Positions 17,286-54,861 of a DNA stretch of 64,000 bases are shown piece by piece. The DNA comes from Notamacropus eugenii. Taxonomy: Eukaryota > Chordata > Mammalia > Diprotodontia > Macropodidae. Under the pieces are notes generated by a model. That model had not been told where the DNA came from, made no database searches, and was given only the letters and a program-made list of their open reading frames with translations. Where the stretch lies: the NCBI RefSeq assembly GCF_028372415.1, contig NC_092875.1, positions 51,150,771 through 51,214,770 on the forward strand, given 5' to 3'. Positions within the stretch are counted from its first letter, which is position 1; the number at the start of each line of letters is the position of its first letter. Made by a program: the position numbers and the translations under genes.

Positions 17286-26066
<8,781 letters not shown>

Positions 26067-26144
26067 ATCTCCTTCAGCCACAAGCTGAGCAGACACATCC
26101 TACTAAGGTGCGCTATGGGCAGAAACACACAGCCAATGGTCAGT

Positions 26145-27890: not shown

Positions 27891-28593
27891 GCCCTGTTCC
27901 TACGGGGCTCCCTTCCCAAAGGGCCACCCACCCAACCTGCAGGTGAGGCCTGGAGACCCTACCTCCCCCAACGAGTACCGCAGTGCGGCTGCCCCGCAGT
28001 GACCCCGCCCCCACCCTCCTTCCCGGCCCCGGCTCGGGAGGCTTCCTCAGGAACCCTAAAGGCCTCGAGTGTCTCCCTTCCACGTGACTCTCCTTTGGTC
28101 TCCCAACGACCCTTAATCTGACCCCTCAAGCCTCGTCCTTCCCCTCCCCCAAAAGTTCCCTTCCTTCTCCGGCCGAGCTCCAGCCCCATCCCCTCCCGTC
28201 CCTCTCCCCAACATCCCCGCCCCTGGATGCCCCACCCCCAAGCCGCCCCCATCCCTGGACCCCAGGATGATTCTCTCCCAGCGCCCCTCCCCCTCGATGC
28301 CTCTCCCCCGGCAGCCCCGCCCCCTCACGCCTCTCCCCCTCCCCCCGGCAGCCCCGCCCCTTGATGCTTCACAGGCCTCTCACTCCTGAGGCCTCACTGA
28401 CCAAAACGCTTCAGAGACCTTGCCCCGCAAATGTCGGGCCCCGATCCCTTCTCTAAGTGCCCAAGTACCTGGTAAAAGGGCCCTGCCTCGCTTGGCCACA
28501 GGCGGAGCTACCTCTCAGGACCAGGGTCTCTAAATCTGCGCTATCCTAATGGCGACTAAAATCCGCGCGCATCCTTAGCCTGGAGATAGCACT

Positions 28594-28606
28594 TGCGCCT
28601 GCGCGG
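28594..28606. promoter_or_regulatory. NRF1-like site
   Basis: TGCGCCTGCGCGG resembles the NRF1 palindrome (GCGCATGCGC core) with one central change. It lies 21 bp from the ZNF143-type site. Confidence 0.5.
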
Positions 28607-28627
28607 AGTTGCTTTTTCAAAAAAGAA

Positions 28628-28647
28628 ACTACGAATCCCAGAATCCT
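28628..28647 (+). promoter_or_regulatory. ZNF143/SBS-type site
   Basis: The sequence starts ACTACGAATCCCAGAAT, a close match to the mammalian promoter motif ACTACAATTCCCAGAATGC bound by ZNF143. Such sites sit near start sites of CpG-island promoters, which helps place the transcription start at about 28.6 kb. Confidence 0.7.
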
Positions 28648-28939
28648 CTGACGCACAGCCTTCGCTTCCCAAAGGAGGAGGACCTGATTGGCTACCAGAA
28701 GTTATTTCCCTAGCCACGCCCCAGGTTTAAGCGGGAGACCCTCAGTTGCCTAGGCGATGAAGTATATGAAATAAACTGGACTCCATCACATTACTCCCTT
28801 CCCTTCCAAACTCTCCAATCCATCATTTCCTGTGGCCCCTAAGACTAGAAATCGTGATTTCATTGTTTTTAGGGTTACGGTCACCAGATCCGATTAGCCC
28901 CACCTATTCTAAGAAAAAGGAGGAGCCTGGATGAGGAGA

Positions 28940-29101
28940 CCAATCAACACCTCGGAAATGGGGGCGAGGGGCGCAAGAGGTCCAGAGGACCAATCACTGC
29001 CTTTGTATTCATGGATGGGGCTTGGAGGAGGAGCAACGAGGCCAATCAGAGCCTCCCAGGAGGGGGAGGGGTGGAGAGAAGAAGCGGGAGGAGGAACCAT
29101 T
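28940..29101 (+). promoter_or_regulatory. CCAAT box series, about 50 bp spacing
   Basis: CCAAT occurs at 28940, 28990 and 29042, each followed by CA or CR, and a degenerate CCATT lies at 29097. The spacings are 50, 52 and 55 bp. The surrounding units share GGAGGAG and AGGACC/AGGCC-like text, suggesting an old tandem duplication. These are likely NF-Y sites. Confidence 0.55.
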
Positions 29102-29308
29102 CAGCCACTCCCTGGCGGGAGGCGCGAGACGAGTCTGGGCCAAACATTACAATTATCAATTAATAATTCCACATGTCCGGTGCGGAGCTTATTACTTTCC
29201 CCACCCCGCCAGATCCATCCCTTCTGTGCCCGTGGGCGTCCTCACGAAGTCGTGGAAGCTCGGAACGCCGGCATCCTCGTCTCCTCGCTCTCTCTCGCTC
29301 CCCCCAAA

Positions 29309-29362
29309 CGCCCGCCCCGCCCCTGCCACGCCCCACCCCTGCCCCGCCCCCGCCCCCGCCAA
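29309..29362 (+). promoter_or_regulatory. GC-box cluster (Sp/KLF type)
   Basis: Repeated CCCCGCCCC, CCACGCCCC and CCGCCCCCG units in about 54 bp, ending in a CCAAT box at 29359-29363. Confidence 0.55.
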
Positions 29363-29599
29363 TCCCGGGCCAGCCACATCCAGACCTTTCTCTTTCCTCA
29401 GCATCTTTCCCGTGAGCCTCCTCTTCCCTGTGCTCACTCTGGGACCACCCAGGTGCAGGTTTCCTAGCTCCTCATCCTCACTGCAGAACCCCCTAGAGTT
29501 GGTCAAACTCCCCTCCAGACCGCTGCCAAAGGGAGGGAGGGAGGAAGGAAGGGGGATTGTTGGCCTTTTAAAAAACGAATGAACGGGCCTAACTAAAAG

Positions 29600-40234: not shown

Positions 40235-42468
40235 TCAGCCAAGTCAGATACAAAGAAAGATAAAAGACAGTTACTACCCTCAAGGAACTTATAATCTAAT
40301 GGTGGCCACAAGAGGCAAACAACTATGTACAAACAAGATAAATACAAGATAAATTAGAGATAATCAATAGAGGGAAGGCATTAGCATTGAGGTAGAGCTG
40401 TAATAGGTGGAATTTTAGCTGAGACTTGAAAGAAGTCTTCTCATCATCTAGGATCTTTGGTACCATCCCTTGTGAGTTTTTATTTTTTATAGAAATTCCT
40501 TGATCTCAGGTTGACACCTTAGTTTCAGACCTGTTCTCACAATATGAACGAAACAAAAATAGTAATGTCCCATAGTACTTGAGCTAGGAGAAAAGTGAGA
40601 GCTGTAAATATGTTCCATCTTCTGTCTCTTCCATCAAGGAGGATTACTTTCAAATATAAAATGGAGAGCAATCAACTCTAAGAAGGTACTCCAGTTCGGT
40701 GGAGGTAGAAAGATAGTAAGAAGGTACTCTATCATTTCATTTATAGGCCCAGGTTCAAACACTGTATTCCATAGTACTGATAACTTGCAGACACGATTTC
40801 AAGAGACATAATAGTTAAGAAACTGAGAACAGAAAGGTCCTGTAAGATCTGAACTGGGTAAATGTATGGGTTTCAAAAAGGAGAAAACATGAAAGGACAC
40901 AGTGGAAAAAACAATGGGTTTGGAGACACAAGTCACAAGTTCAAATTTCAGTTCCACTATTTACTACCAGTGTGCCCTTGGCTTCCCCTCTGTGGGCCTA
41001 AGTTTCCTCATCTGTAAAATGAGATTGGTTTCCCTCTTCCACACTCAAGAGTTTGTTCAGCTCTCTGGGACCTGTTGCTCTCCCTCTGTTCTCCTGGAAG
41101 CCCAAAAGACAAGGACCTGGCACCCTGATGCTCTATTTCCAGTCTTCTGGAAGATCCAAGGATGATCATGATAATAATAATTCATATTTATTAAATTAGA
41201 TATTTGTAAAGTGCTTAACACAGTCTCCAGCACATAGTAAGTACTATATAAATGTTTAACAAAAAAAAAATTTTAATAGCACCTTAAGTTTTGCAAAGCT
41301 CTTCATTTGTATTATCTCAGTTGATTCTAGCAACAATCCTAGGAGGAAGGAGCTACTATTTTACTATCTCCATTTTACATTTACATTTTATATTTATTTT
41401 ATGCATTTACAGATAAGGAAACTAAAGCAGAGACTGAATGACTTGCCTAGGGTTACACAGCCAGTAAGTGGATGAGGTAGGGTTTGAACTCAGGTCTTCC
41501 GGCTTATCCACCTTTCGTTTCCACCTGGCACTCAACTCTCAACTGTGGCTACAAGAAGCTGTAGCATATATAATGGCTACACCCAATAAAACTGTCTCAG
41601 CCAGGTTGAGGCCTCAGACCCATCAGTGAGTTAGGGATCCCCCTACCCTAAGCATGTGAAGACTTCTCCCTGTGGAAAGGATGGATGAAGACACCTGAAG
41701 CAGGCACTGTGGAGCGTTTAGAGCTTGGTCAGACATCTAAGACACCAAGGTCATTTGCTGAATCCCAAGCCACTGACAGTCACACTGACTTTTTCTTGCC
41801 CTTGAACTTTGATGACTCTGGAAGAGAGAGTGAAGTTAATGATTCCCTGCAATTCACTCAGTAAGTCAAGATATCACCCGTTATACCATTGGTCCTTTTC
41901 AAAAAATAAAGATTGAACAATAGCTTTGGAGGACACTTAGCACCATTTACTATTGAATCCACCACGGAAAGGCCTGGTTCACTGTCTCAACATTAATCAT
42001 CTTATAATTTCATCATTTGGAAATCAATCAGTCCTTAATTTGTGTCTTAATGGCTACAAGCAGGTGGAAGGGCAGCTACCATCATTGCTTTGGGATTAAT
42101 GACTCTAGAGAGCAGGCCTGTGGAAGCTCCTGCTCCTGAGTCTGAGGCATTTTGCCTGCTTTTCAAGGTTCTCTCCCTGGGAATCTGAAGGGAACAAGTG
42201 ATGTGTCAATGTGTGTTTAGTAACTCAGCAAATAGTATTTAAAGCAGGAAGTTTTTAACCTGAGGACCATGAACATGTTTCGTTTGTTTGGTTTTTTTGC
42301 TTAATATTTTGATAACTGTTTTTTAATATAATTGGTTCTCTTTGTAAACTTATGTATTTTATTTTATGCATTTAAAAATCTTATTCTGAAGGGGGCTCCA
42401 TAGGTTTTGCCAGGCTGCTTAAAAGGTCCAGGAGTCTAGTCAACAAGCATTTTTTAAAAATATTTTAG
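40235..42468. repeat. Family A, SINE and MIR copies 5' of the intact L1
   Basis: 40235-40450 is family A. 40890-41060 is THER-type (TCATCTGTAAAATGAGATTGG). 41165-41515 is MIR (GATTTGCCTAGGGTTACACAG-like text). Family B is at 41690-41930. 42250-42450 is an old repeat ending near the L1 5' end. No gene seen. Confidence 0.5.
41690..41930 (+). repeat. Interspersed repeat (family B), copy 3
   Basis: The fullest copy: GAGCTTGGTCAGACATCTAA, ACTCTGGAAGAGAGAGTG, CAAGATATCACCCG, GGTCCTTTTCAA. Confidence 0.5.
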
Positions 42469-43078
42469 AATCTTCAGCCTGAAGACGGACTTCGGTGGGT
42501 CACTACTTGAACTTCCAGGAACTGGGATGGCAGAGTGATCAGTAAGTGCTCTCTCCTCCCCCCTGATGACCCTGAGGGAACCATAAAATTCTTCCCCAGA
42601 TTAATCCTGGATCAGCGGGAACAGCAGAAGGGGGCGGGTGGTCTCATAACACCAGAGGCTGGAAAAGTGGCAAAGGGGGATTCTTCCTACTGTGGTGGAG
42701 GCGATCTGGAGGAACAGACGACCCAGGGCAGAGAAAATTCATACTGAGACCCAGGCAAGCCTCAGAGCCGGGAGACGAGCCCCAGGAGGGGCGGGAACAT
42801 GCGTTAGCTTCTAGGCGTGCCCCAGCCCTCCAGGGGAAAAGGGAAGACAATAGGGAAGCTGGGATTACCATCCCCTGACCTTGCCTATGCCTCAAGTCAG
42901 CTGAGGAGATAGCCTGAGACCAGACCACACCTCCCACACACCTAACAAGCTAACCCCAGGGTTGATCGGGGAAACAAAAAACAAAAGCCTGCTTTTAGCC
43001 TAGACACACATCAGCTCAACTTAAAGATCTGTACCTTCTGACTGAAAGAACCAAAAGCTACAACACTCAGCCAACATC
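42469..43078 (+). promoter_or_regulatory. L1 5' UTR / internal promoter region
   Basis: GC-richer than its surroundings, with several GGGGCGGG/GAGGGGCGGG stretches. It leads straight to ORF1 with no long ORF of its own. In L1 this region holds the internal promoter; no specific factor site is claimed. Confidence 0.6.
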
Positions 43079-44260
43079 ATGAATCGGAAAAAGCAGACGA
43101 AAAGTGAAAAAACCATAGAATCTTTCTATGGGGATAAGGACCAAAACACAAACACCAAAGAGGTTAGAGCTGAGACTGTACTTCCATCTGAAACCTCAGA
43201 TGGGACTATGAATTTCTCGCAAGCACAACTAGATTACCTGGAACGTCTGAAGAAGGATATAAAAGAAAAACTGGCCAATGATTTTAAAACTATAAAAAAA
43301 GAATTCACTGATGAGAACATCACCCTGAAAAAGAAAATTGAAGAAATGGAAAAGGAAGTTCAAAAATTAACTGGAGAGAATAATTCCCTAAAAGGAAGAG
43401 CTAATCAAATGGAAAAGGAAACCCAAAACCTAATTGGGAAAATTGATCAGATGGAAAAGGAAACCCAAAACCTAACTGGGAAAATTGGTCGAATGGAAAA
43501 AGAAGTACAAAAATTAAATGGAGAAAATAGCTCCTTAAAGGGAAAAATTGGTCAGATGGAAAAGGAGATGGAAAAGCTAACTGAAGAAAACACTACGATG
43601 AAGATTAGAATTGGGCAAGTAGAAACTAATGACTCAATGAGGCAACAAGAATCAGTCAAACAAAATCTAAAGAATGAAAAGATAGAAGAAAATGTAAAAT
43701 ATTTAATTGGAAAAACAACTGACCTGGAAAACAGATCCAGGAGAGAAAATCTAAGAATTATTGGCCTGCCAGAAACCCATGATGAAGAAAAGAGTCTGGA
43801 CAATATCTTCCAGGAAATCATCAAGGAAAACTGTCCAGAAGTACTAGACTCAGAGGGCAAAATAGTCATCGAAAGAATCCACCGTTCCCCTCCTGAAAGG
43901 GATCCCAAACTCAAAACCCCAAGAAATATAGTTGCCAAATTCCAGAGCTATCAAGTGAAGGAGAAAATACTACAAGCAGCCAGAAAGAAACAATTCAAAT
44001 ATCAAGGACACACAGTCAGGATCACACAGGACCTTGCAGCTTCTACATTAAAAGATCGAAAGAATTGGAACCCAATATTCCGTAAGGCAAAGGAGTTGGG
44101 ACTTCAACCAAGGATCAACTACCCAGCAAAGTTCAGCATAACATTTCAGGCAAGGAGAAAGTCATTCAACGAAATAAGGGATTTCCAGAGCTTCCTGACC
44201 AAAACACCAGAACTCAATAGACAATTTGATCTTCAAATGCAGGTCTCCAGAGAATCATAA
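43079..44260 (+). CDS. L1 ORF1 protein, 393 aa
   Basis: This is the L1 RNA-binding chaperone, which trimerises and packages L1 RNA in the cytoplasm. The N-terminus (1-45) is basic/polar. A long coiled coil (about 46-215) contains repeated QMEKE-T/V-Q-x-L units around residues 110, 124, 138 and 159, at 14- or 21-residue steps that keep heptad phase. The RRM follows (about 219-313, with the RNP2-like NLRIIGLPE), then the C-terminal domain (about 314-380, with DLAASTLKDR and PRINYPAKFSI). It ends in TAA. It is somewhat longer than human ORF1p (338 aa), mainly through the coiled coil. The start ATG follows CAACATC. Confidence 0.93.
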   Translation: MNRKKQTKSEKTIESFYGDKDQNTNTKEVRAETVLPSETSDGTMNFSQAQLDYLERLKKDIKEKLANDFKTIKKEFTDENITLKKKIEEMEKEVQKLTGENNSLKGRANQMEKETQNLIGKIDQMEKETQNLTGKIGRMEKEVQKLNGENSSLKGKIGQMEKEMEKLTEENTTMKIRIGQVETNDSMRQQESVKQNLKNEKIEENVKYLIGKTTDLENRSRRENLRIIGLPETHDEEKSLDNIFQEIIKENCPEVLDSEGKIVIERIHRSPPERDPKLKTPRNIVAKFQSYQVKEKILQAARKKQFKYQGHTVRITQDLAASTLKDRKNWNPIFRKAKELGLQPRINYPAKFSITFQARRKSFNEIRDFQSFLTKTPELNRQFDLQMQVSRES

Positions 44261-44825
44261 AAAGGTAAACAGAGGGGAAAAAACAAAAACAAAAACTTGC
44301 TACTCAATTAGGGCAAACTGTTTACCTCCCTATAAGGGAAGATGATACCTGTTAATCTTGAGAACTGTGCAGCTATTATGATAAAAGGGATATATGTAGA
44401 GGGAACGGGCATAAAGTAAATGATGTCATGTCAAAAATATGATTTAAGTATGAGAAGGGAATGTAATAGGAGGTGTGGAAAGGGGGAAGCAGAAAATGGC
44501 AAATTATATCACAGGAAGAAGTACAAAACTATAGTAGAGGGAAGGAGGGGAGGGAGATGAGCATTGTTTGAGAGGTACTCTCATCTGATTTGTTCAAAGG
44601 AGGGAACAATAATCTTAAGTAGATAATGCTAACTAGCTCTATAGGTAGTAGGAGGGGAAGGGGGAAGAAAGGGGAGGGTGGCTAAAAGGGAGGAAAGAAG
44701 CAATAAGAGTAAAGGGAACTAAAAGGGAGGGGGGTCAAAAGAAGGAGGGGAAGGCTGCAGGAGGAGGGGGAGAAAAGTGAATACTATTGAGGAGGGGAAG
44801 GGAGACGGGAGAGCTAAAAGCACAA
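44261..44825 (+). other. Inter-ORF spacer of L1, purine/G rich
   Basis: A spacer of 565 bp, far longer than the tens of bases in human and mouse L1. The second half is almost pure purine, with many GGGG/GGGAGG runs (44525-44800). The second L1 copy has a spacer of similar length and composition (about 50141-50750), so this is a property of the family rather than damage. Confidence 0.8.
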
Positions 44826-47800
44826 ATGGTGGGAAAGAGGTTGGAGGGAAATACACAGATTGTAATCATAACTGTGAATGTGAATGGAATGAACTCTCCC
44901 ATAAAACGGAGACGGATAGCAGAATGGATTAAAAGCCATAATCCAACAATATGCTGCTTACAAGAAACACATTTGAAACGGGGGGATACACATAGGATAA
45001 AGGTCAAAGGATGGAGCAGAATATATTGTGCTTCAGCTCATGTAAGAAAGGCAGGAGTAGCAATCCTAATCTCAGACAAAGCAAAAGCAGAAATAGATCT
45101 AATCAAAAGGGATAAGGATGGAAACTATATCCTGCTAAAAGGCACCATAGACAATGAAGCAATATCATTACTAAACATGTATGCTCCAAGTGGTATAGCA
45201 TTCAGATTCTTAGAGGAGAGGTTGGGGGAGTTGAAGAAAGAAATTGATAGCAAAACTATACTAGTGGGGGACCTCAACCTCCCCCTCTCTGAACTAGATA
45301 AATCCAACCTCAAAATAAACAAGAAAGAGGTTAAGGAGGTAAATAAAACTCTGGATAAGGTAGATATGATAGATCTTTGGAGAAAATTAAATGGGAATAG
45401 AAAGGAATATACTTTTTTCTCAGCGGTACATGGAACATTTACAAAAATTGACCATGTACTACTAGGACATAAAAATCTCACAATCCAGTGCAGAAAGGTA
45501 GAGATAATCAATGCATCCTTTTCAGATCATAATGCATTAAAAATTACATGTAATAAAAGGCCATGGAAAGAGAAACCAAAAATCAATTGGAAACTAAATA
45601 ATCTAATTCTAAAGAAGGGTTGGGTTAAAGAAGAAATCATAGAAACAATCAACAATTTCATTCGAGAGAATGACAATAGTGAGACAACATACCAAAACTT
45701 ATGGGATACGGCAAAAGCAGTTATTAGGGGAAGTTTTATATCTCTGAATGCTTACATAAATAAAATAGAGAAAGAGGAGATCAATGACTTAGGCTTGCAG
45801 TTGAAAAAGCTAGAAAAAGAACAAATTGAAAATCCCCAAGTAAATACCAAATTAGAAATACTGAAAACCAAAGGAGAGATTAATAAAATTGAAATTAAGA
45901 AAACTATTGAATTAATAAATAAAACCAATAGTTGGTTTTATGAAAAAACTAATAAAATTGATAAACCTTTGGTCAATCTGATTAAAAAAAAGAAAGAAGA
46001 AAACCAAATTACTAATATTAAAAATGAAAGGGGTGAACTCACCTCCAATGAGGAGGAAATTAAAACAATAATTAGAAACTACTTTGCCCAACTTTATGCC
46101 CACAAATTCGATAATCTAAATGAGATGGATGAATATTTTAAAAAATACAAATTGCCCAGATTAACAGAAGAGGAAGTTGATTACTTAAACAACCCCATCT
46201 CAGAAAAAGAAATTGAACAAGCCATCAATGAACTCCCTAGGAAAAAATCTCCAGGGCCAGATGGATTCACAAGTGAATTCTATCAAACATTTAAAGAACA
46301 GTTAATTCCAATACTACATACACTATTCTTGAAAATTGGGGAAGAAGGAGTCCTCCCAAATTCTTTCTATGATACAAATATGGTTTTGATACCCAAACCA
46401 GGAAGAGACAAAACAGAGAAAGAAAATTATAGACCAATTTCCCTAATGAATATAGATGCAAAAATTTTAAATAAGATTCTAGCAAAACGAATACAGCATC
46501 TTATCACGAGATTAATACATTATGATCAGGTAGGATTCATACCAGGACTACAGGGCTGGTTCAATATTAGGAAAACTATTAGCATTATCGATCACATCAA
46601 CAACAAAGCTAACAAAAACCACATGATTATCTCAATAGATGCAGAAAAAGCTTTTGACAAAATACAACATCCATTCCTACTAAAAACATTGGAGAATGTA
46701 GGAATAAAGGGAACTTTCCATAAAATAATAAGCAGTATCTATCTAAAACCTTCAGCAAGCATTATATGCAATGGGGATAAGCTAGATGCATTCCCAATAA
46801 GATCAGGGGTGAAACAAGGTTGTCCATTATCACCACTATTATTTAATATGGTACTAGAAATGTTAGCTGTAGCAATTAGACAAGATAAAGATATCCAAGG
46901 AATTAAAATAGCCAAAGAAGAAACTAAGTTATCACTCTTTGCAGATGATATGATGATTTACCTAGAGAATCCCAGAGATTCAAGTAAAAAATTACTAGAA
47001 TTAATAAACAACTTTGGCAAAGTTGCAGGGTACAAAATAAACCCACACAAATCTTCTGCATTCCTATATATTAGCAACAAAGTCCAACAGCAAGAGATAG
47101 AAAGAGAAATCCCATTTAAAGTTAGGGTAGACAGTATAAAATACTTAGGAGTCTACCTGCCAAAACAAACCCAGGGATTATATGAACGCAATTACAAGAC
47201 ACTTTTTGCACAAATAAAGTCAGATTTAAGTAAGTGGAAAAACATTAGTTGCTCATGGGTAGGCTGTGCTAATATAATAAAAATGACAATTCTACCTAAA
47301 TTAATATACTTATTTAGTGCCATACCAATTAAACTATCAGACAATTACTTTCTAGAGCTGGACAAAATAATATCAAAATTCATTTGGAAAAACAAAAGGT
47401 CCAGAATATCAAAGGGACTAATGAAAAGAAATGCTTGGGAAGGTGGCCTAGCGCTACCAGACCTCAAACTGTACTATAAAGCAGCAATTATCAAAACCAC
47501 TTGGTATTGGCTAAGAAACAGAGAGGTAGACAAGTGGAATAGACTTGGCACTCAAGATGCAGTAGGCAAGGAATATAGCAACCTTCTGTTTGATAAACCC
47601 AAGGACCCCAGCTTCTGGGATAAGAACTCATTGTTTGACAAAAATTGCTGGGAAAACTGGATAACAGTGTGGCGGAAATTAGGCATAGACCCATACCTGA
47701 CACTGTACACAAGAATAAAGTCCAAATGGGTACATGATTTAGGTATAAAGATTGATACCATGAATAAACTGGAGAAGCAAGGAATAGTGTATTTATCAGA

Positions 47801-48680
47801 TCTATGGAGAAGGGAAGAATTCTTTACTAAAGGAGAGATAGAATGCATTATGAAATGCAAAATGGATAACTTTGATTACATTAAACTGAGAAGTTTTTGC
47901 ACAACCAAACCCAATGCAACCAAAATCCGGAGGGCTGTAGTAAATTGGGAAAGAATTTTTACAGCTAAGCTCGGGGATAAAGGCCTCATTTCTAGAATGT
48001 ATAGAGAACTGATCCAAATGTACAATCATACAAGTCATTCCCCAATTGATAAATGGTCAAAGGATATGAACAGGCAATTTTCAGAGGAAGAAATTAAAGC
48101 TATCTATAATCATATGAAAAAATGCTCTAAATCACTATTGGTTAGAGAGATGCAAATCAAAACAACTCTGAGGTACCACATCACACCTATAAGATTGGCA
48201 AACATGACAGAACAAGAAAATGATAAATGCTGGAGAGGATGTGGGAAAGTTGGAACACTAATTCATTGTTGGTGGAGCTGCGAGCGCATCCAGCCATTCT
48301 GGAGAGCAATTTGGAACTATGCCCAAAGGGCTACAAAAATGTGCATACCCTTTGACCCAGCAATATCGCTACTAGGACTATATCCCCAAGAGATCATAAA
48401 AATGGGAAAGGGTCCCACATGTACAAAAATATTTATAGCAGCACTCTATGTAGTTGCCAAAAACTGGAAGTCAAGGGGATGTCCATCAATTGGGGAATGG
48501 CTGAATAAATTATGGTATATGAATGTAATGGAGTACTATTGTGCCATAAGAAATGATGAACAAGAAGACTTCAGAGAGGCCTGGAAGGACTTATATGACC
48601 TGATGCTCAGTGAAAGGAGCAGAACCAGGAGAACTTTATGCACAGCAACAACCACAGTGTGTGAGAGTTTTTTCTGGTAG
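44826..48680 (+). CDS. L1 ORF2 protein, 1284 aa (endonuclease, reverse transcriptase)
   Basis: This is the enzyme for target-primed reverse transcription. The first ATG of the open frame is at 44826; the frame is open 39 nt further 5' but without an ATG. The endonuclease domain (about 1-245) keeps NVNG (18-21), QETH (Glu 47), GDLN and SDHN. The RT domain (about 500-770) keeps SPGPDG, the SIDAEKAFD block, [10 protein letters not shown] and FADD (705-708). The C-terminal Cys motif CWRGC...HCWWSC starts at about residue 1135. Length and motif spacing match human ORF2p (1275 aa; FADD at 700-703). It stops at TAG 48678-48680. No internal stop or frameshift is seen. Confidence 0.94.
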
Positions 48681-48965
48681 ACTTAGATTTTTGTAATAAC
48701 ACAAGAACTTCTTACCAAAAAAAAAAAAAAATCCCAATGGAGGATCTCAAGGCAAAATGCCTGCCACACTCAGAGAGAGAAATATGGAAGTCACTCACAT
48801 ATTGTAGCAGATCATGTTTGTGTATGTGTATGTGTTTGTGTATCATGTTCTGATTTGTTATACGATTTCTTTCATTTATCTTAGTCTGACTACATAGCAT
48901 GACTATAGTGAAAATATACTCAATAGGAAAGTATATGTAGAATCTATACAGAATTGTATGCAGTC

Positions 48966-49008
48966 GTGGGGAGGGAGGGGGGGAGTGGGGGGTAGGTGGG
49001 GGGGATAA
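48966..49008 (+). other. G-rich tract in L1 3' UTR
   Basis: Several runs of 4-7 G separated by 1-3 bases, which fits a G-quadruplex-forming sequence. Mammalian L1 3' UTRs commonly carry such a polypurine tract. Confidence 0.7.
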
Positions 49009-49110
49009 AATCACAATTGTATGGCAGTGACTGTTAAACATTACAAAATAAAAAAAAAAGAAAAAAGAAAAAAAAGAAAAATTAAAAAAAAAGAAAAAGA
49101 AAAAAAAAAT

Positions 49111-49396
49111 TTTAAACATTTTTTTTGAGTTCCAAATTCTCTCCTTCTCTTCTATCATTTCCCCACCCATTGAGAAGATAAGCAATATGATATTAATTAT
49201 GCATGTGAAATCATGCAAGACATATTTTCATATTAGCCATGTTGCCCAAAAAGTAAGAAAAATAAAGTGAAAAAATTATACTTCAATCTGCACTCAGTTC
49301 ATCAGTTCTCTCTCTCTGGAAGTGGATAGTATTTTTCCTCATGAGTCCTTTGCAATTGTCCTGTATCATTATATTGACCAAAATAACTAAGTCAAA
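49111..49396 (-). mobile_element. Old minus-strand L1 3' end, left part
   Basis: Reverse-complement L1 3' UTR text (TTTGAGTTCCAAATTC, CTCTGGAAGTGGATAG, GAGTCCTTTGCAATTG). It continues at 54862 after the insertion of a younger L1. It begins in T-rich sequence where the intact L1 ends. Confidence 0.7.
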
Positions 49397-52300
49397 GTAC
49401 AAAAACTAACTGGAGAAAATAACTCCCTAAAAGGAACAAGTGGACAGATGGAAAAGGAGATGCAAAAGTCAACTGAAGAAAACAATCTATTAGAAATTAG
49501 AATTGGGCAAGTAAAAGCTAATGACTCTATGAGACATCAAGAATCAGTCAAAGAATGAAAAAATAGAAGAAAATGTAAAATATTTCATTGGAAAAACAAC
49601 TGACCTGGAAAATAGATCCAGAAGAGAAAATCCAAGAATTATTGGTCTACTGGAAAGCCATGATGAAAAAAAGAGCCTAGATAATATCTTCCAGGAAATC
49701 ATCAAGGAAAACTGCCCAAAGGTCCTGGATCCAGAGGGCAAAATAGTCATCGAAGGAATTCACCAATCACCTCCTAAAAGGGATCCCAAGCTGAAAACAC
49801 CAAGGAATACCATTACCAAATTCCAGAACTATCAAGTGAAGAAGAAAATACTGCAGGAAGCCAGAAAGAAACAATTCAAATATAGAGGAACTACAGTCAG
49901 GATCACACAGCACCTTGCAGCTTCTACATTAAAAGATCAAAGGGATTGGCATATGATATTCTGTAAGGCAAAGGAGTTGGGACTACAACCAAGGATCAGT
50001 TACCCAGAAAATTGAGCATAATATTTCAGGCAAGGAGATGGACATTCAATGAAATAAGGGATTTCCAGATCTTCCTGATGAAAAGGCCAGAGCTCAATAG
50101 AAAATTCGATCTTCAAACACAAGTCTCAAGAGAGGCATAAAAAAGGTAAATGGGGCAGGGGGGAGACTTTGTTATTCAATATGGGCAAATTGTTTACATC
50201 CCTATAAGAGAAGATGATACTTGTTAATCTTTAGAATTGTACATTTATTATGATACTTAAAAGAGATATACATAGAGGGAGTTGGTATAAATTAAATGAG
50301 GTGAAGATAAAAATGTGGTTTAAGGGTGCAAAGGGATTGTAATGGGAGAGGTGAAAAGGAGGAGGCAGGAAAAGGTAAATAACATTACAGGAAGAGGCAC
50401 AAAAACATATTACAGTAGAGGGAAAGAGGGGAGGGAGATGAGCACTGTTTGAGCACTCTCATCTGATTTGGTTCAAGGAGGGAATAACAAACTCAATTAA
50501 GTATAGAAATCTAAGTAGCTCTATAGGCAGTAGGAGGGGAAAGGGGAAAGAAAAGAGAGGGGAGGCTAAAAGGGAGGGAAGAAGGAGTAAGGGGAAAAGG
50601 GAGTAAAAGGGAGGGAGACTGAAAGAAGGAAAGGAAGACTGAGGGAGGTGATCAAAAATTAAAACTCTATTGTGGAGGGGAAGGGAGAAGGGAGAACTAA
50701 AAATATAAATGGGGGAAAGAGGACAAAAGGAAAGACACAGGTAGTAATCATAACTGTGAATGTGAATGGAATGAACTCTCCCATAAAACAGAGACAGATA
50801 GCAGAATGGATTAAAAACCATAATCCAACAATATGTTGTTTACAAGAAACACATTTGAAATGGAGGGATATACACAGAGTAAAGGTAAAAGGTTAGAAAC
50901 AGAATATATTGTGCTTCAGCTGATGTTAAAAAAGCAGGGGTAGTAATCCTAATCTCAGACAAAGCAAAAGCAGAAATAGATCTAAATGAAAGAGATAAGG
51001 AAGGAAACTATATCCTGCTAAAAGGCACCTTAGACAACGAAGAAATATCATTGCTAAACATATATGCTCCAAGTGGTATAGCATCCAAATTCTTAGATTT
51101 AACTTAGAGAAGTTAAAGGAGTTACAGGAAAAAACTAGATAGCAAAACTATACTAGTAGGAGACCGCAGCCTTCCCCTCTCTGAACCTGATAAATCTAAT
51201 CTAAAAAAATAAACAAAGAAAGAAGTCAAGGAGGTGAATAAAACTCTGGATAAGGTAGATATGATAGATCTCTGGAGAAAACTGAATGGGGATAGAAAGG
51301 AATATACCTTTTTCTCAGCAGTACATGGCACATATACAAAAATTGACCATAGTACACTTGGGCATAAAAACCTCACAATACAGTACAGAAAGGCAGAGGG
51401 AGTCAATCCTTCTCTGATCATAATGCAATAAAAATTATATGTAATAAAAGGCTATGGAAAGATAGACCAAAAATTAATGGAAAACTAAATAATCTAATCC
51501 TAAAGAATGAGTGGGTTAAACATCAAATCATAGAAAAAATCAACAACTTCATTCAAGGGAATGACAATAATGAGACAACCTACCAAAACTTATGGGATAC
51601 TGCAAAAGCAGTTCTTAGGAGAAGTTTTATATCATTGAATGCCTACATGAATAAAATAGAGAAAGAGAAGATCAGTGAATTGGGCATGCAGCTGAAAAAG
51701 CTAGAAAAAAAACAAATTAAAAATCCCCAAGTAAATACCTAAATAGAAATACTGAAAATCAAAGGAAAGATTAATAAAATTGAAATTAAGAAAACTATTG
51801 AACTAATAAATAAAACTAAGAGTTGGTTTTATGAAAAAACCAATAAAATTGATAAACCTTTGGTCAATTTGATTTAAAAAAAGAAAGAAGAAAACCAAAT
51901 TAGCAATATAAAAAATGAAAAGGGTGAACTCACCTCCAATGAGGAGGAAATTAAAACAATAATTATCAATTACTTTACCCAACTGTATGCCCATAAATTT
52001 GACATCTAAGTGAGATGGATGAATATTTTTAAAAAATATATAAATTGCCCAGATTGACAGAGGAGGAAGTTGAATACTTAACCCCATCTCAGAAAAAGAA
52101 ATTGAACAAGCCATCCTCCCTGGGAAAAAATCTCCAGGGTCAGATGGATTTACAAGTGAATTCTATCAAACATTTAAAGAACAATTAATTCCAAAAGTAT
52201 ATAGACTATTTGGGAAAATTGGTGAAGGAGTCCTACCAAATTCTTTTAACGATATAAATATGGTTCTGATGCCTAAACCAGGAAGAACCAAACAGAGAAA

Positions 52301-54861
52301 GAAAATTATAGACCAATTTCTCTAATGAATATAGATGCAAAAATTTTAAGTAAGATATTAGCAAAAAGAATAAAACAATTTATCACTAGAATAATACATT
52401 ATGATCAGCTAGGAGTTATACCAGGAATGCAGAACTGGTTCAATATTAGGAAAACTATCAGCATTATTGACCATATGAACAACAAAACTAACAGAAACCA
52501 TATGATTATCTCAAGAGATGCAGAAAAAGTTTTTGACAAAATACAACACCCATTCCTATTAAAAATACTAGAGAGCATAGGAATAAATGAAACTTTCCAT
52601 AAAATAATAAGCAGTATCTACCTAAAATCATCAGCAAGTACTATATGCAATATGGATAAGTTAGATACATTTCCAATAAGATCCAAGGATGTCCATTATC
52701 ACCACTGTTATTCAATATGGTACTAAAAATGTTAGCTTTAGCAATAAGAGAAGAAAAAGAAATTGAAGGAATTAGAATAGGCAAAGAAGAAACTAAGTTA
52801 TCACTCTTTGCAGATGACATGATGATATACTTAGAGATCTCAGAGAATCAAGTAAAAAATACTTGAAATAATAAACAACTTTGGCAAAGTCACTGGTTAC
52901 AAAATAAACCCAGATAAATGCATTTCTATATATTACTAACAAAGCCCAATAGCAAGAGATAGAAAGAGGAATCCCATTTAAAGCTACAATATAAATATAT
53001 CTGGAAGTCTACCTGCCAAAACAAACCCAGGGACTATATGAACACAATTACAAAACACTTTTTGCACAATTAAAGTCATACATAAGTGGAAAAACATCAG
53101 TTGCTCATGGGTAGCCCAAACTAATATAATAAAAATGTCAATTCTACCTAAATAATTTACTTATTCATTGCCATACCAATCAAACTACCAGATAATTATT
53201 TTCTAGAGCTAGAAAAAATAATATCAAAATTCATCTGGAAGAACAAAAAGTCCAGAATATCAAGGGAACTAATGAAAAGAAATGCTAGGGAAAGTGACCT
53301 AACCCTACTAGATCTCAAATTGTATTATAAAGCAGCAATCACCAAAACCATTTGGTACTGGCTAAGAAATAAGAGGGGTAGACCAGTGGAATAGGTTAAG
53401 TATTCAAGACCTAGTAGTCAATGAATATAGCAATCATTTTGGTTTGATAAACCCAAGGACTCCAGCTTCTGGGATAAGAACTCATTGTCTGACAAAAACT
53501 GCTGGGAAAACTGGATAACGTGTGGTGGAAATTGGGCAGAGACCAATGCCTGACACTGCACACGAGAATAAAGTCCAAATGGACACATAATCAAGGTATA
53601 ATGATTGATACTATAAACAAATTAGGGGAGCAAAGAATAGTGTGTTTGTCAGACTTATGGAGAATGGAGAAATTTTTGACCAAACAAAAGATAGAAAACA
53701 TTATGATGTGCAAAATGGATAATTTTGATTACATTAAATTGAAAAAATTTTGCACAAATAAACCCAATGCAACCAAGATTAGGAGGGAAGCAGAAAACTG
53801 GGAAAGAATTTTTGCAACTAGTGTCTGTGACAAAGGCCTCATTTCTAAAATATATAGAGAATTGAGTCAACTGTGCAAGAATACAAGTCATTCCCCAATT
53901 GATAGTCAAAGGATATCAACAGGAAGTTTTCAGAGGAAGAAATTAAAGATATCCATAGTCATATGAAAAAAATGCTCTAAATCACTATTGATTAGAGAGA
54001 TGCACATCAAAACAACTCAGATACCACATCACACCTATCAGATTGGCTAACATGACAAAACAGGAAGATGATAAATGTTGGAGAAGATGTGTGAGAGTTG
54101 GAACAGTACTTCATTGTTGGTAGAGCTGTGAGCTGATCCAACCATTCTGGAGAGCAATTGGGAACTATGCCTAAAGGGCTACAAAAATGTGCATACCCTT
54201 TGACCCAGCAATATCGCTTCTAGGACTGTAATCTCAAAGAGATCATAAAAATGGAAAAGGGTCCCACACGCACAAAAATATTTACAGCAGCTCTCTTTGT
54301 AGTAGCCAAAAACTGGAAATCGAGGAGATGCCCATCAATGGGGGAATAGTTGAACAACTGGTGGTATATGAATGTCATGGAATACTATTGTGCTATAAGA
54401 AATGATGAACAGGAAGACTTCGGAGAGGCATGGAAGGACATATGAACTGATGCTGTGAAAGAAGCAGAACCAGGAGAACTTTGTACACAGCAACAACCAC
54501 AGTGTACAAGGAATTTTTCTGGTAGACATAGCCCTTCACAGCAATGCAAGGACCTAAAAAATTCCCAATTGACTCAAGGCAAAATGCCATCAACAACCAG
54601 AGAAAGAACTATGAAATTGGATTAAAGAATGAAGCAGACTATTTTCTCTTGTGTTTTTGTTTTGTTTTGTTTTGGTTTGGTTTTTTTTCATGGTTTCTCC
54701 CATTCATTTTAATTCTTCCATGCAACATGACTAAGGTGAAAATGTATTTAGTAAGAATGTATGTGTAGAACCCATATAAGACTGCACACCACCTAAGGGA
54801 GGGAGGAGAAAAATCTAAGATTTATGGAAGTGATTGTAGAAAACTGAAAACAAATTAATTA
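49397..54861 (+). mobile_element. 5'-truncated, broken L1 inserted in an older L1
   Basis: Starts inside ORF1 (GTACAAAAACTAACTGG) and closely tracks the intact element through ORF1 (to about 50140), the purine-rich spacer, ORF2 (about 50740-54525) and the 3' UTR. ORF1 has an early stop (after QESVKE, near 49556). ORF2 has several stops and small indels, so only pieces remain open (e.g. 52325-52726 with RT blocks, 53520-53966). The insertion splits a minus-strand L1. Both sides carry TAAGTC, a likely short target-site duplication. It is older than the intact copy but of the same type. Confidence 0.88.

What the first reader, a model, noticed from the sequence alone, without database searches (positions are those of the whole stretch)
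42469..49110. Full-length L1 with both ORFs intact, possibly active
ORF1 (393 aa) and ORF2 (1284 aa) are open throughout. They keep the endonuclease residues, FADD and the C-terminal Cys motif. 5' UTR, 3' UTR, poly(A) signal and tail are all present. Intact copies are rare among L1s, so this is a candidate source element for current mobilisation.
Basis: partly seen in the sequence, partly recalled or inferred. Interest (0 to 1): 0.75.

Follow-up and report, generated by a model that had tools for sequence, protein, structure and literature searches.

The report
Promoter-less L1 from young wallaby family
This tammar wallaby jumping gene still has both protein genes open but has lost the front end that should switch it on, so it is probably not a source of new copies; its near-identical relatives, however, suggest that L1 has jumped recently in a kangaroo lineage where it was reported to be nearly or entirely inactive.

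Summary
The ORFs are real: ORF1 (393 aa) and ORF2 (1284 aa) are open, with endonuclease, FADD and Cys motifs, 3' UTR and A-rich tail. "Full-length" is wrong. The missing piece, CpG-rich with a YY1-type site, is present wholly or in part in 23 of 28 loci. The copy also lacks a clean target-site duplication and has a codon insertion in the endonuclease unseen in 24 aligned copies. "Intact copies are rare" fails here: 102 of 105 scored ORF1 hits and 31 of 36 scored ORF2 hits have no stop, 9 of 28 fetched loci have both ORFs complete, and an exact 43-base 5' end occurs 1,255 times. The wider result is at family level: two ORF-intact copies with complete 5' ends show 11 mismatches in 6,939 bp, different flanks and own 13-bp duplications. 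This goes against a 2017 inference of little or no L1 activity in kangaroos over 10 My, for this species. Present-day activity is not shown.

The parts
42469..43078 (+). remaining 610 bp of a 5' UTR that is about 957 bp in complete copies; the first 347 bp are absent
42468..42469 (+). 5' truncation junction; no clean target-site duplication, and the repeats on both sides of the element look interrupted
43079..44260 (+). ORF1, 393 aa: coiled coil with 42-bp internal repeats, RRM-like and C-terminal domains
44261..44825 (+). inter-ORF spacer, 565 bp, 72% purine, 12 ATG; present wholly or in part in all 28 loci
44826..48680 (+). ORF2, 1284 aa (1283 aa in most other open copies)
44868..45530 (+). 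endonuclease domain (Exo_endo_phos, residues 15-235)
45457..45459 (+). 3-bp in-frame insertion (extra Leu after IDHV) in the endonuclease, absent from the 24 other aligned copies; human ORF2p also lacks the residue
46389..47156 (+). reverse transcriptase domain (RVT_1, residues 522-777); FADD at 46938-46949
48228..48281 (+). C-terminal CX3CX7HX4C motif
48681..49044 (+). 3' UTR with G-rich tract about 48966-49006
49045..49109 (+). A-rich tail interrupted by G and T; AATAAA at 49047-49052

Best explanation
This is a 5'-truncated copy of a young L1 family of the tammar wallaby (Notamacropus eugenii). It was probably made by target-primed reverse transcription (TPRT) of an RNA from another, complete element. 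Either reverse transcription stopped 347 bp short of the RNA's 5' end, with loss of some target DNA, or the 5' end was deleted afterwards. Both ORFs remain open because the insertion is young (about 1-3 My), not because this copy has been kept as a source. Without the 5' end it probably cannot start its own RNA. Shown: the truncation, the open ORFs, the near-identical relatives and the lack of a clean duplication. Inferred: loss of promoter function, TPRT as the route, and the age. The family itself appears to have moved within roughly the last million years.
For: 23 of 28 fetched loci carry, wholly or in part, sequence upstream of the point where this copy starts, and 16 of 28 (L013, the reference, among them) begin at base 1-2 of the 347-bp piece. 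That 5' end carries a CAAGATGGC (YY1-type) site at +12 and 25 CpG against 12 in the retained 610 bp. All 13 loci tested have exact repeats of 10-17 bp flanking the element, so their 5' ends are real insertion ends (in L013 and L014 they sit 5 and 10 bp off the junction). The window copy has only a weak match (8 bp exact; 32 of 500 shuffles reach its gapped score). It differs from 20 other aligned copies by 0.61-1.19% and from the 4 of a sister subfamily by 2.04-2.15%, with 13 private substitutions. L035 and L042 differ by 11 mismatches and 2 gaps over 6,939 bp, with different flanks and own 13-bp duplications. In ORF2, nonsynonymous:synonymous is 172:87 for private and 24:45 for shared changes, p=3.5e-6 (24 copies), as expected if source lineages are under selection and copies drift.
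Against: Loss of promoter function was not measured; the retained 610 bp might have some promoter activity. The fetched loci were picked by ORF1 or ORF2 similarity, so fractions are not genome-wide. With only the 16 ORF1-ranked copies the selection test is weak (152:74 against 14:16, p=0.04; without CpG sites 142:64 against 9:11, p=0.04). The private ratio (about 2.0) is also below the neutral expectation of 2.79. Genome-wide searches for this copy's private insertion and its junctions did not complete, so offspring are not excluded.
Confidence: 0.86

Rival explanations
1. The copy is a complete element of a subfamily with a shorter, 610-bp 5' UTR and its own promoter, and is a current source.
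For: Both ORFs are open and the tail is present. Sister copies L035, L036, L039 and L042 show that 5' UTRs vary between subfamilies.
Against: None of the 27 other fetched loci starts at this point. The copy groups with copies that have the 957-bp 5' UTR. There is no clean duplication at this junction, and the 5' flank was found once only at high identity.
Confidence: 0.05
2. The copy was inserted full length and a later deletion removed the 5' flank, the 5' duplication and the first 347 bp.
For: No clean duplication, and repeats that look interrupted on both sides. The 5'-truncated copies L015 and L028 keep duplications of 14 and 15 bp, so truncation alone does not explain the loss.
Against: TPRT with target-site deletion gives the same picture (described in a review, PMC5857280, passage).
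Confidence: 0.35
3. The copy is mobile now, driven by an outside promoter or helped in trans.
For: Both ORFs are open.
Against: No offspring were seen, though the search was limited. It carries private ORF2 changes: S126F, E138K, H788R, D1037A, I1058M and an extra Leu in the endonuclease. P960L is shared with one other copy (L040). P960 and I1058 are the same residues in human ORF2p. Their effect is untested.
Confidence: 0.06
4. An assembly or consensus artefact.
For: High-copy repeats can be collapsed in assemblies (general knowledge).
Against: The copy has 13 private substitutions and a private insertion and sits in its own flanks; other copies have their own duplications.
Confidence: 0.02

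Closest known systems
Human L1 (ORF2p structures 8uw3, 9k6g, 9hdo; ORF1p 2yko/2ykp)
   Same: Two ORFs, EN-RT-Cys ORF2p aligned over nearly its whole length, ORF1p with RRM and CTD. In complete copies the 5' end carries a CAAGATGGC site near +12; that human L1 has a YY1 site there is recalled.
   Different: Inter-ORF spacer is 565 bp (human about 63 bp, recalled). The complete element is about 6.9-7.0 kb. The window copy lacks 347 bp of 5' UTR.
Marsupial L1s of Tasmanian devil and opossum (ORF1 relatives P0002, P0005, P0011)
   Same: ORF1 homologues over 87-96% of the query at 53-57% identity. Devil L1 moves in DFT2 tumours (PMC7614631, passages).
   Different: Other species; no DNA of those elements was fetched, so only ORF1 protein was compared.
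Longer copies of the same family in this genome (L013, L020, L027, L037, L041)
   Same: They differ from the window copy by 0.70-0.99% over the shared part and have the same spacer and ORF layout (L013 and L041 do not have both ORFs complete).
   Different: They carry the 957-bp 5' UTR and flanking duplications of 11-17 bp (in L013 5 bp off the junction); the window copy does not.

Membership tests
L1 clade of non-LTR retrotransposons | ORF1p with coiled coil, RRM-like and C-terminal domains | tested here: met
L1 clade of non-LTR retrotransposons | ORF2p with APE-type endonuclease, reverse transcriptase and C-terminal Cys motif | tested here: met
L1 clade of non-LTR retrotransposons | 3' UTR with G-rich tract and an A-rich tail | tested here: met
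   sequence; tandem repeats
L1 clade of non-LTR retrotransposons | target-site duplication flanking the insertion | tested here: inconclusive
   window copy: best exact match 8 bp; gapped score reached by 32 of 500 shuffles. Sister copies: 13 of 13 tested have 10-17 bp
Full-length, potentially active L1 | complete 5' UTR with internal promoter | tested here: not met
   347 of about 957 bp missing; promoter activity itself not measured
Full-length, potentially active L1 | both ORFs open | tested here: met
Full-length, potentially active L1 | transcription or retrotransposition of this copy | not testable with these tools
   no RNA or population data here

The most novel reading that the evidence does not exclude
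L1 is still retrotransposing in the tammar wallaby germ line, from many ORF-intact, 5'-complete elements of at least two subfamilies. [quoted passage not shown] Some insertions, such as the near-identical pair L035 and L042, should be restricted to the tammar lineage or polymorphic.
Probability: 0.65. Interest if true: 0.55.

Novelty: new member of a known kind. Interest (0 to 1): 0.4.

Why it matters
The copy itself is ordinary. Its family matters because a 2017 study (PMC5711953) inferred little or no L1 activity in macropods over the last 10 My, possibly complete inactivation, and suggested that endogenous retrovirus activity may have risen in its absence. The data here point to movement within roughly the last million years in one macropod. 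That weakens one proposed L1 extinction, as happened for the Tasmanian devil, and makes the question directly testable by presence/absence typing in wallaby populations and sister species.

Tried and rejected
Rejected: full-length status; rarity of intact copies; assembly artefact. A second haplotype or an offspring carrying the 5' flank was looked for with the 969-bp 5' flank: only the window itself matched at high identity; the other 42 of 43 listed matches are 68-83% identical, reach no further than base 425 of 969, and look like old repeats (40 of 5,746 candidates scored; the search skips very common words).

Led nowhere: genome-wide searches for the private 3-bp insertion, the 5' junction and the 3' flank, ORF2 searches from L037 and L035, and a search with P0110; none was answered. 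Literature: no paper giving intact-L1 counts for the tammar was seen in 10 searches of an open-licence library that lacks most subscription papers, with passages or single sections read of 12 papers. PMC12424770 may hold such a count in a supplement that I could not open, and a later correction of the 2017 claim may exist elsewhere. PMC13174262 held none of six terms looked for.

The selection contrast is partly driven by the sister subfamily; with ORF1-ranked copies alone it is marginal (p=0.04). One search gave a first count in which the duplicated pair L023/L024 was not collapsed; replace it. The private set of the window copy fell from 15 (17 copies) to 13 (24 copies) and may fall further with more copies. 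For alignments and the tree I left out L009, L010 and L019 (3 of 28), because their homology to the element ends early; L024, nearly identical to L023, was also left out of the change counts. The SINE motif used was recalled, and the view that both flanking repeats are interrupted rests on few copies.

Full report
What was checked. ORF1 (43079-44260) and ORF2 (44826-48680) are open as stated. Domains and motifs are those of L1: Pfam Transposase_22 and Tnp_22_dsRBD, Exo_endo_phos and RVT_1, human ORF2p over residues 8-1270 and human ORF1p over residues 177-383.

Which genome. The window lies at C14:51150771-51214770 of a 3.445-Gb genome. A fourth (C14, 478,166,881) differs by 4,394 bases from that of P0001. 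I take the species to be the tammar wallaby.

Not full length. Twenty loci ranked by ORF1 similarity (one being the window copy) and eight ranked by ORF2 similarity were fetched: 28 in all. In 23 of 28 the element continues, wholly or in part, upstream of the window copy's first base; 16 of 28 (including L013, the reference) begin at base 1 or 2 of a 347-bp piece that the window copy lacks. The other five without that piece are the window copy, L010, L015, L028 and L040. Complete 5' UTRs of this subfamily are about 957 bp and begin with a G-run, a CAAGATGGC site and CpG-rich DNA: 25 CpG in the missing 347 bp against 12 in the retained 610 bp. That this site binds YY1 and that the 5' end is the promoter are inferred from human L1 (recalled). 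All 13 loci tested have exact flanking repeats of 10-17 bp, two of them (L013, L014) 5 and 10 bp off the junction; L019 was not tested. The window copy has no convincing one (best exact match 8 bp; 32 of 500 shuffles reach its gapped score). The repeats on both sides look interrupted, which suggests loss of target DNA.

Not rare. Of 105 scored ORF1 hits (from 277,024 loose candidates) 102 have no stop, and all 105 are 99-100% identical to this ORF1. Of 36 scored ORF2 hits (from 403,756 candidates) 31 have no stop. Both lists include the window copy, hold only the best candidates and are lower bounds. Among the 28 fetched loci 9 have ORF1 of 393 aa and ORF2 of at least 1280 aa: the window copy, L015, L020, L027, L035, L036, L037, L039 and L042. 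Five of the nine (L020, L027, L035, L037, L042) also reach the 5' start; the window copy and L015 do not, and L036 and L039 match it only in part. An exact 43-base stretch of the 5' end occurs 1,255 times (639 forward, 616 reverse), the reversed control 0 times. These loci were picked for similarity, so 9 of 28 is not a genome-wide rate.

Age and evolution. In 25 alignable copies the window copy differs by 0.61-1.19% from 20 others and by 2.04-2.15% from four of a sister subfamily (L035, L036, L039, L042). The tree is close to a star: summed terminal branches 0.087, internal 0.033. Terminal branch of the window copy 0.0029; 13 private substitutions among 24 copies. I used 0.87e-9 per site per year (koala 6.12e-9 per generation over 7 years, my division) and 2.35e-9 (Virginia opossum), both from passages of PMC13247528. 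That gives about 0.8-3.3 My for this copy. A 10-My-old copy should show 57-154 changes; the largest private count seen is 32, and the longest terminal branch, 0.0064, would be about 42. L035 and L042 share 6,939 bp with 11 mismatches and 2 gaps, the match ending at the element ends; their flanks differ and each has its own exact 13-bp duplication. Half of 0.16% at those rates is about 0.3-0.9 My. For scale, tammar and red-necked wallaby are said to have split about 3 My ago (PMC10815390, passage). No mutation rate for the tammar itself was found, so all ages are rough.

Selection. In ORF2 the private changes are 172 nonsynonymous to 87 synonymous and the shared ones 24 to 45 (Fisher p=3.5e-6, 24 copies); neutral expectation 2.79 to 1. 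With only the 16 ORF1-ranked copies it is 152:74 against 14:16, p=0.04. This fits an L1 family whose source lineages keep working ORFs while daughter copies drift, though the private ratio stays below neutral.

The window copy's own changes. Private among 24 copies: S126F, E138K, H788R, D1037A and I1058M in ORF2, four synonymous changes in the ORFs, and four outside them. P960L is shared with L040. P960 and I1058 are the same residues in human ORF2p. A 3-bp in-frame insertion adds a Leu after IDHV in the endonuclease; none of the 24 other aligned copies has it, and human ORF2p lacks the residue. Whether these changes harm the protein is unknown.

Source test. The 969-bp 5' flank has no other high-identity match in the assembly (40 of 5,746 candidates scored), so no offspring carrying it and no second haplotype were seen. 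Searches for the junction, the 3' flank and the private insertion did not complete.

Literature. [quoted passage not shown] robustus were broken, 38 LINE1 loci from the M. [quoted passage not shown] Random ORF2 clones (mean distance 0.178 there) mostly sample old copies, so a young minority would be missed; that is my reading. The present data concern N. eugenii only and do not test M. robustus. A similar reversal is on record: the devil was listed there among proposed extinctions (passage), while PMC7614631 (passages) reports hundreds of L1 insertions and 35 source elements in DFT2. PMC12424770 (section 8 and passages) includes the tammar and counts L1s within 10% of 6.1 kb; a complete 6.9-7.0-kb element would fall outside that range, while a truncated one such as this (6.64 kb) would fall inside. 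What they counted for the tammar I did not see.

Verdict. An ordinary, recently inserted, 5'-truncated L1 with open ORFs, unlikely to be a source. The family it belongs to is the finding worth a second look.

Noticed in passing
49395-54776 (+): A second, older L1 directly downstream and in the same orientation: 84% identical, 5'-truncated, frames broken.
   Followed up: partly
44261-44825: The inter-ORF spacer is 565 bp, purine-rich and holds 12 ATG, yet it is kept in nearly all fetched copies; how ORF2 is translated across it is an open question.
   Followed up: partly
43404-43528: 42-bp (two-heptad) tandem repeats in the ORF1 coiled coil, suggesting coil length can change by repeat slippage.
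   Followed up: no
17286-18896 (-), 25584-26096 (-), CpG-rich 28001-29500: ORFs that look like the C2H2 zinc-finger and SCAN parts of a ZSCAN-type gene on the minus strand, with a CpG-rich stretch upstream (names by eye, no family search run).
   Followed up: no
23964-24299: About seven near-perfect copies of a 49-bp tandem repeat (99% matches), perhaps length-variable between individuals.
   Followed up: no
L023 and L024: Two L1 copies 160 kb apart on C4, 0.015% different, sharing the same 3' flank and a TAG stop in ORF2: a recent segmental duplication, not two insertions.
   Followed up: partly
protein P0003: A protein labelled Bacteroidales MAG is 58% identical to this marsupial L1 ORF1 over 99%, on a 2,533-bp contig; probably host DNA binned into a gut metagenome assembly.
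   Followed up: no
L010, L015, L028: Three 5'-truncated copies all begin within 20 bp of each other, 69-88 bp before ORF1; possibly a preferred stop of reverse transcription or a shorter RNA.
   Followed up: no
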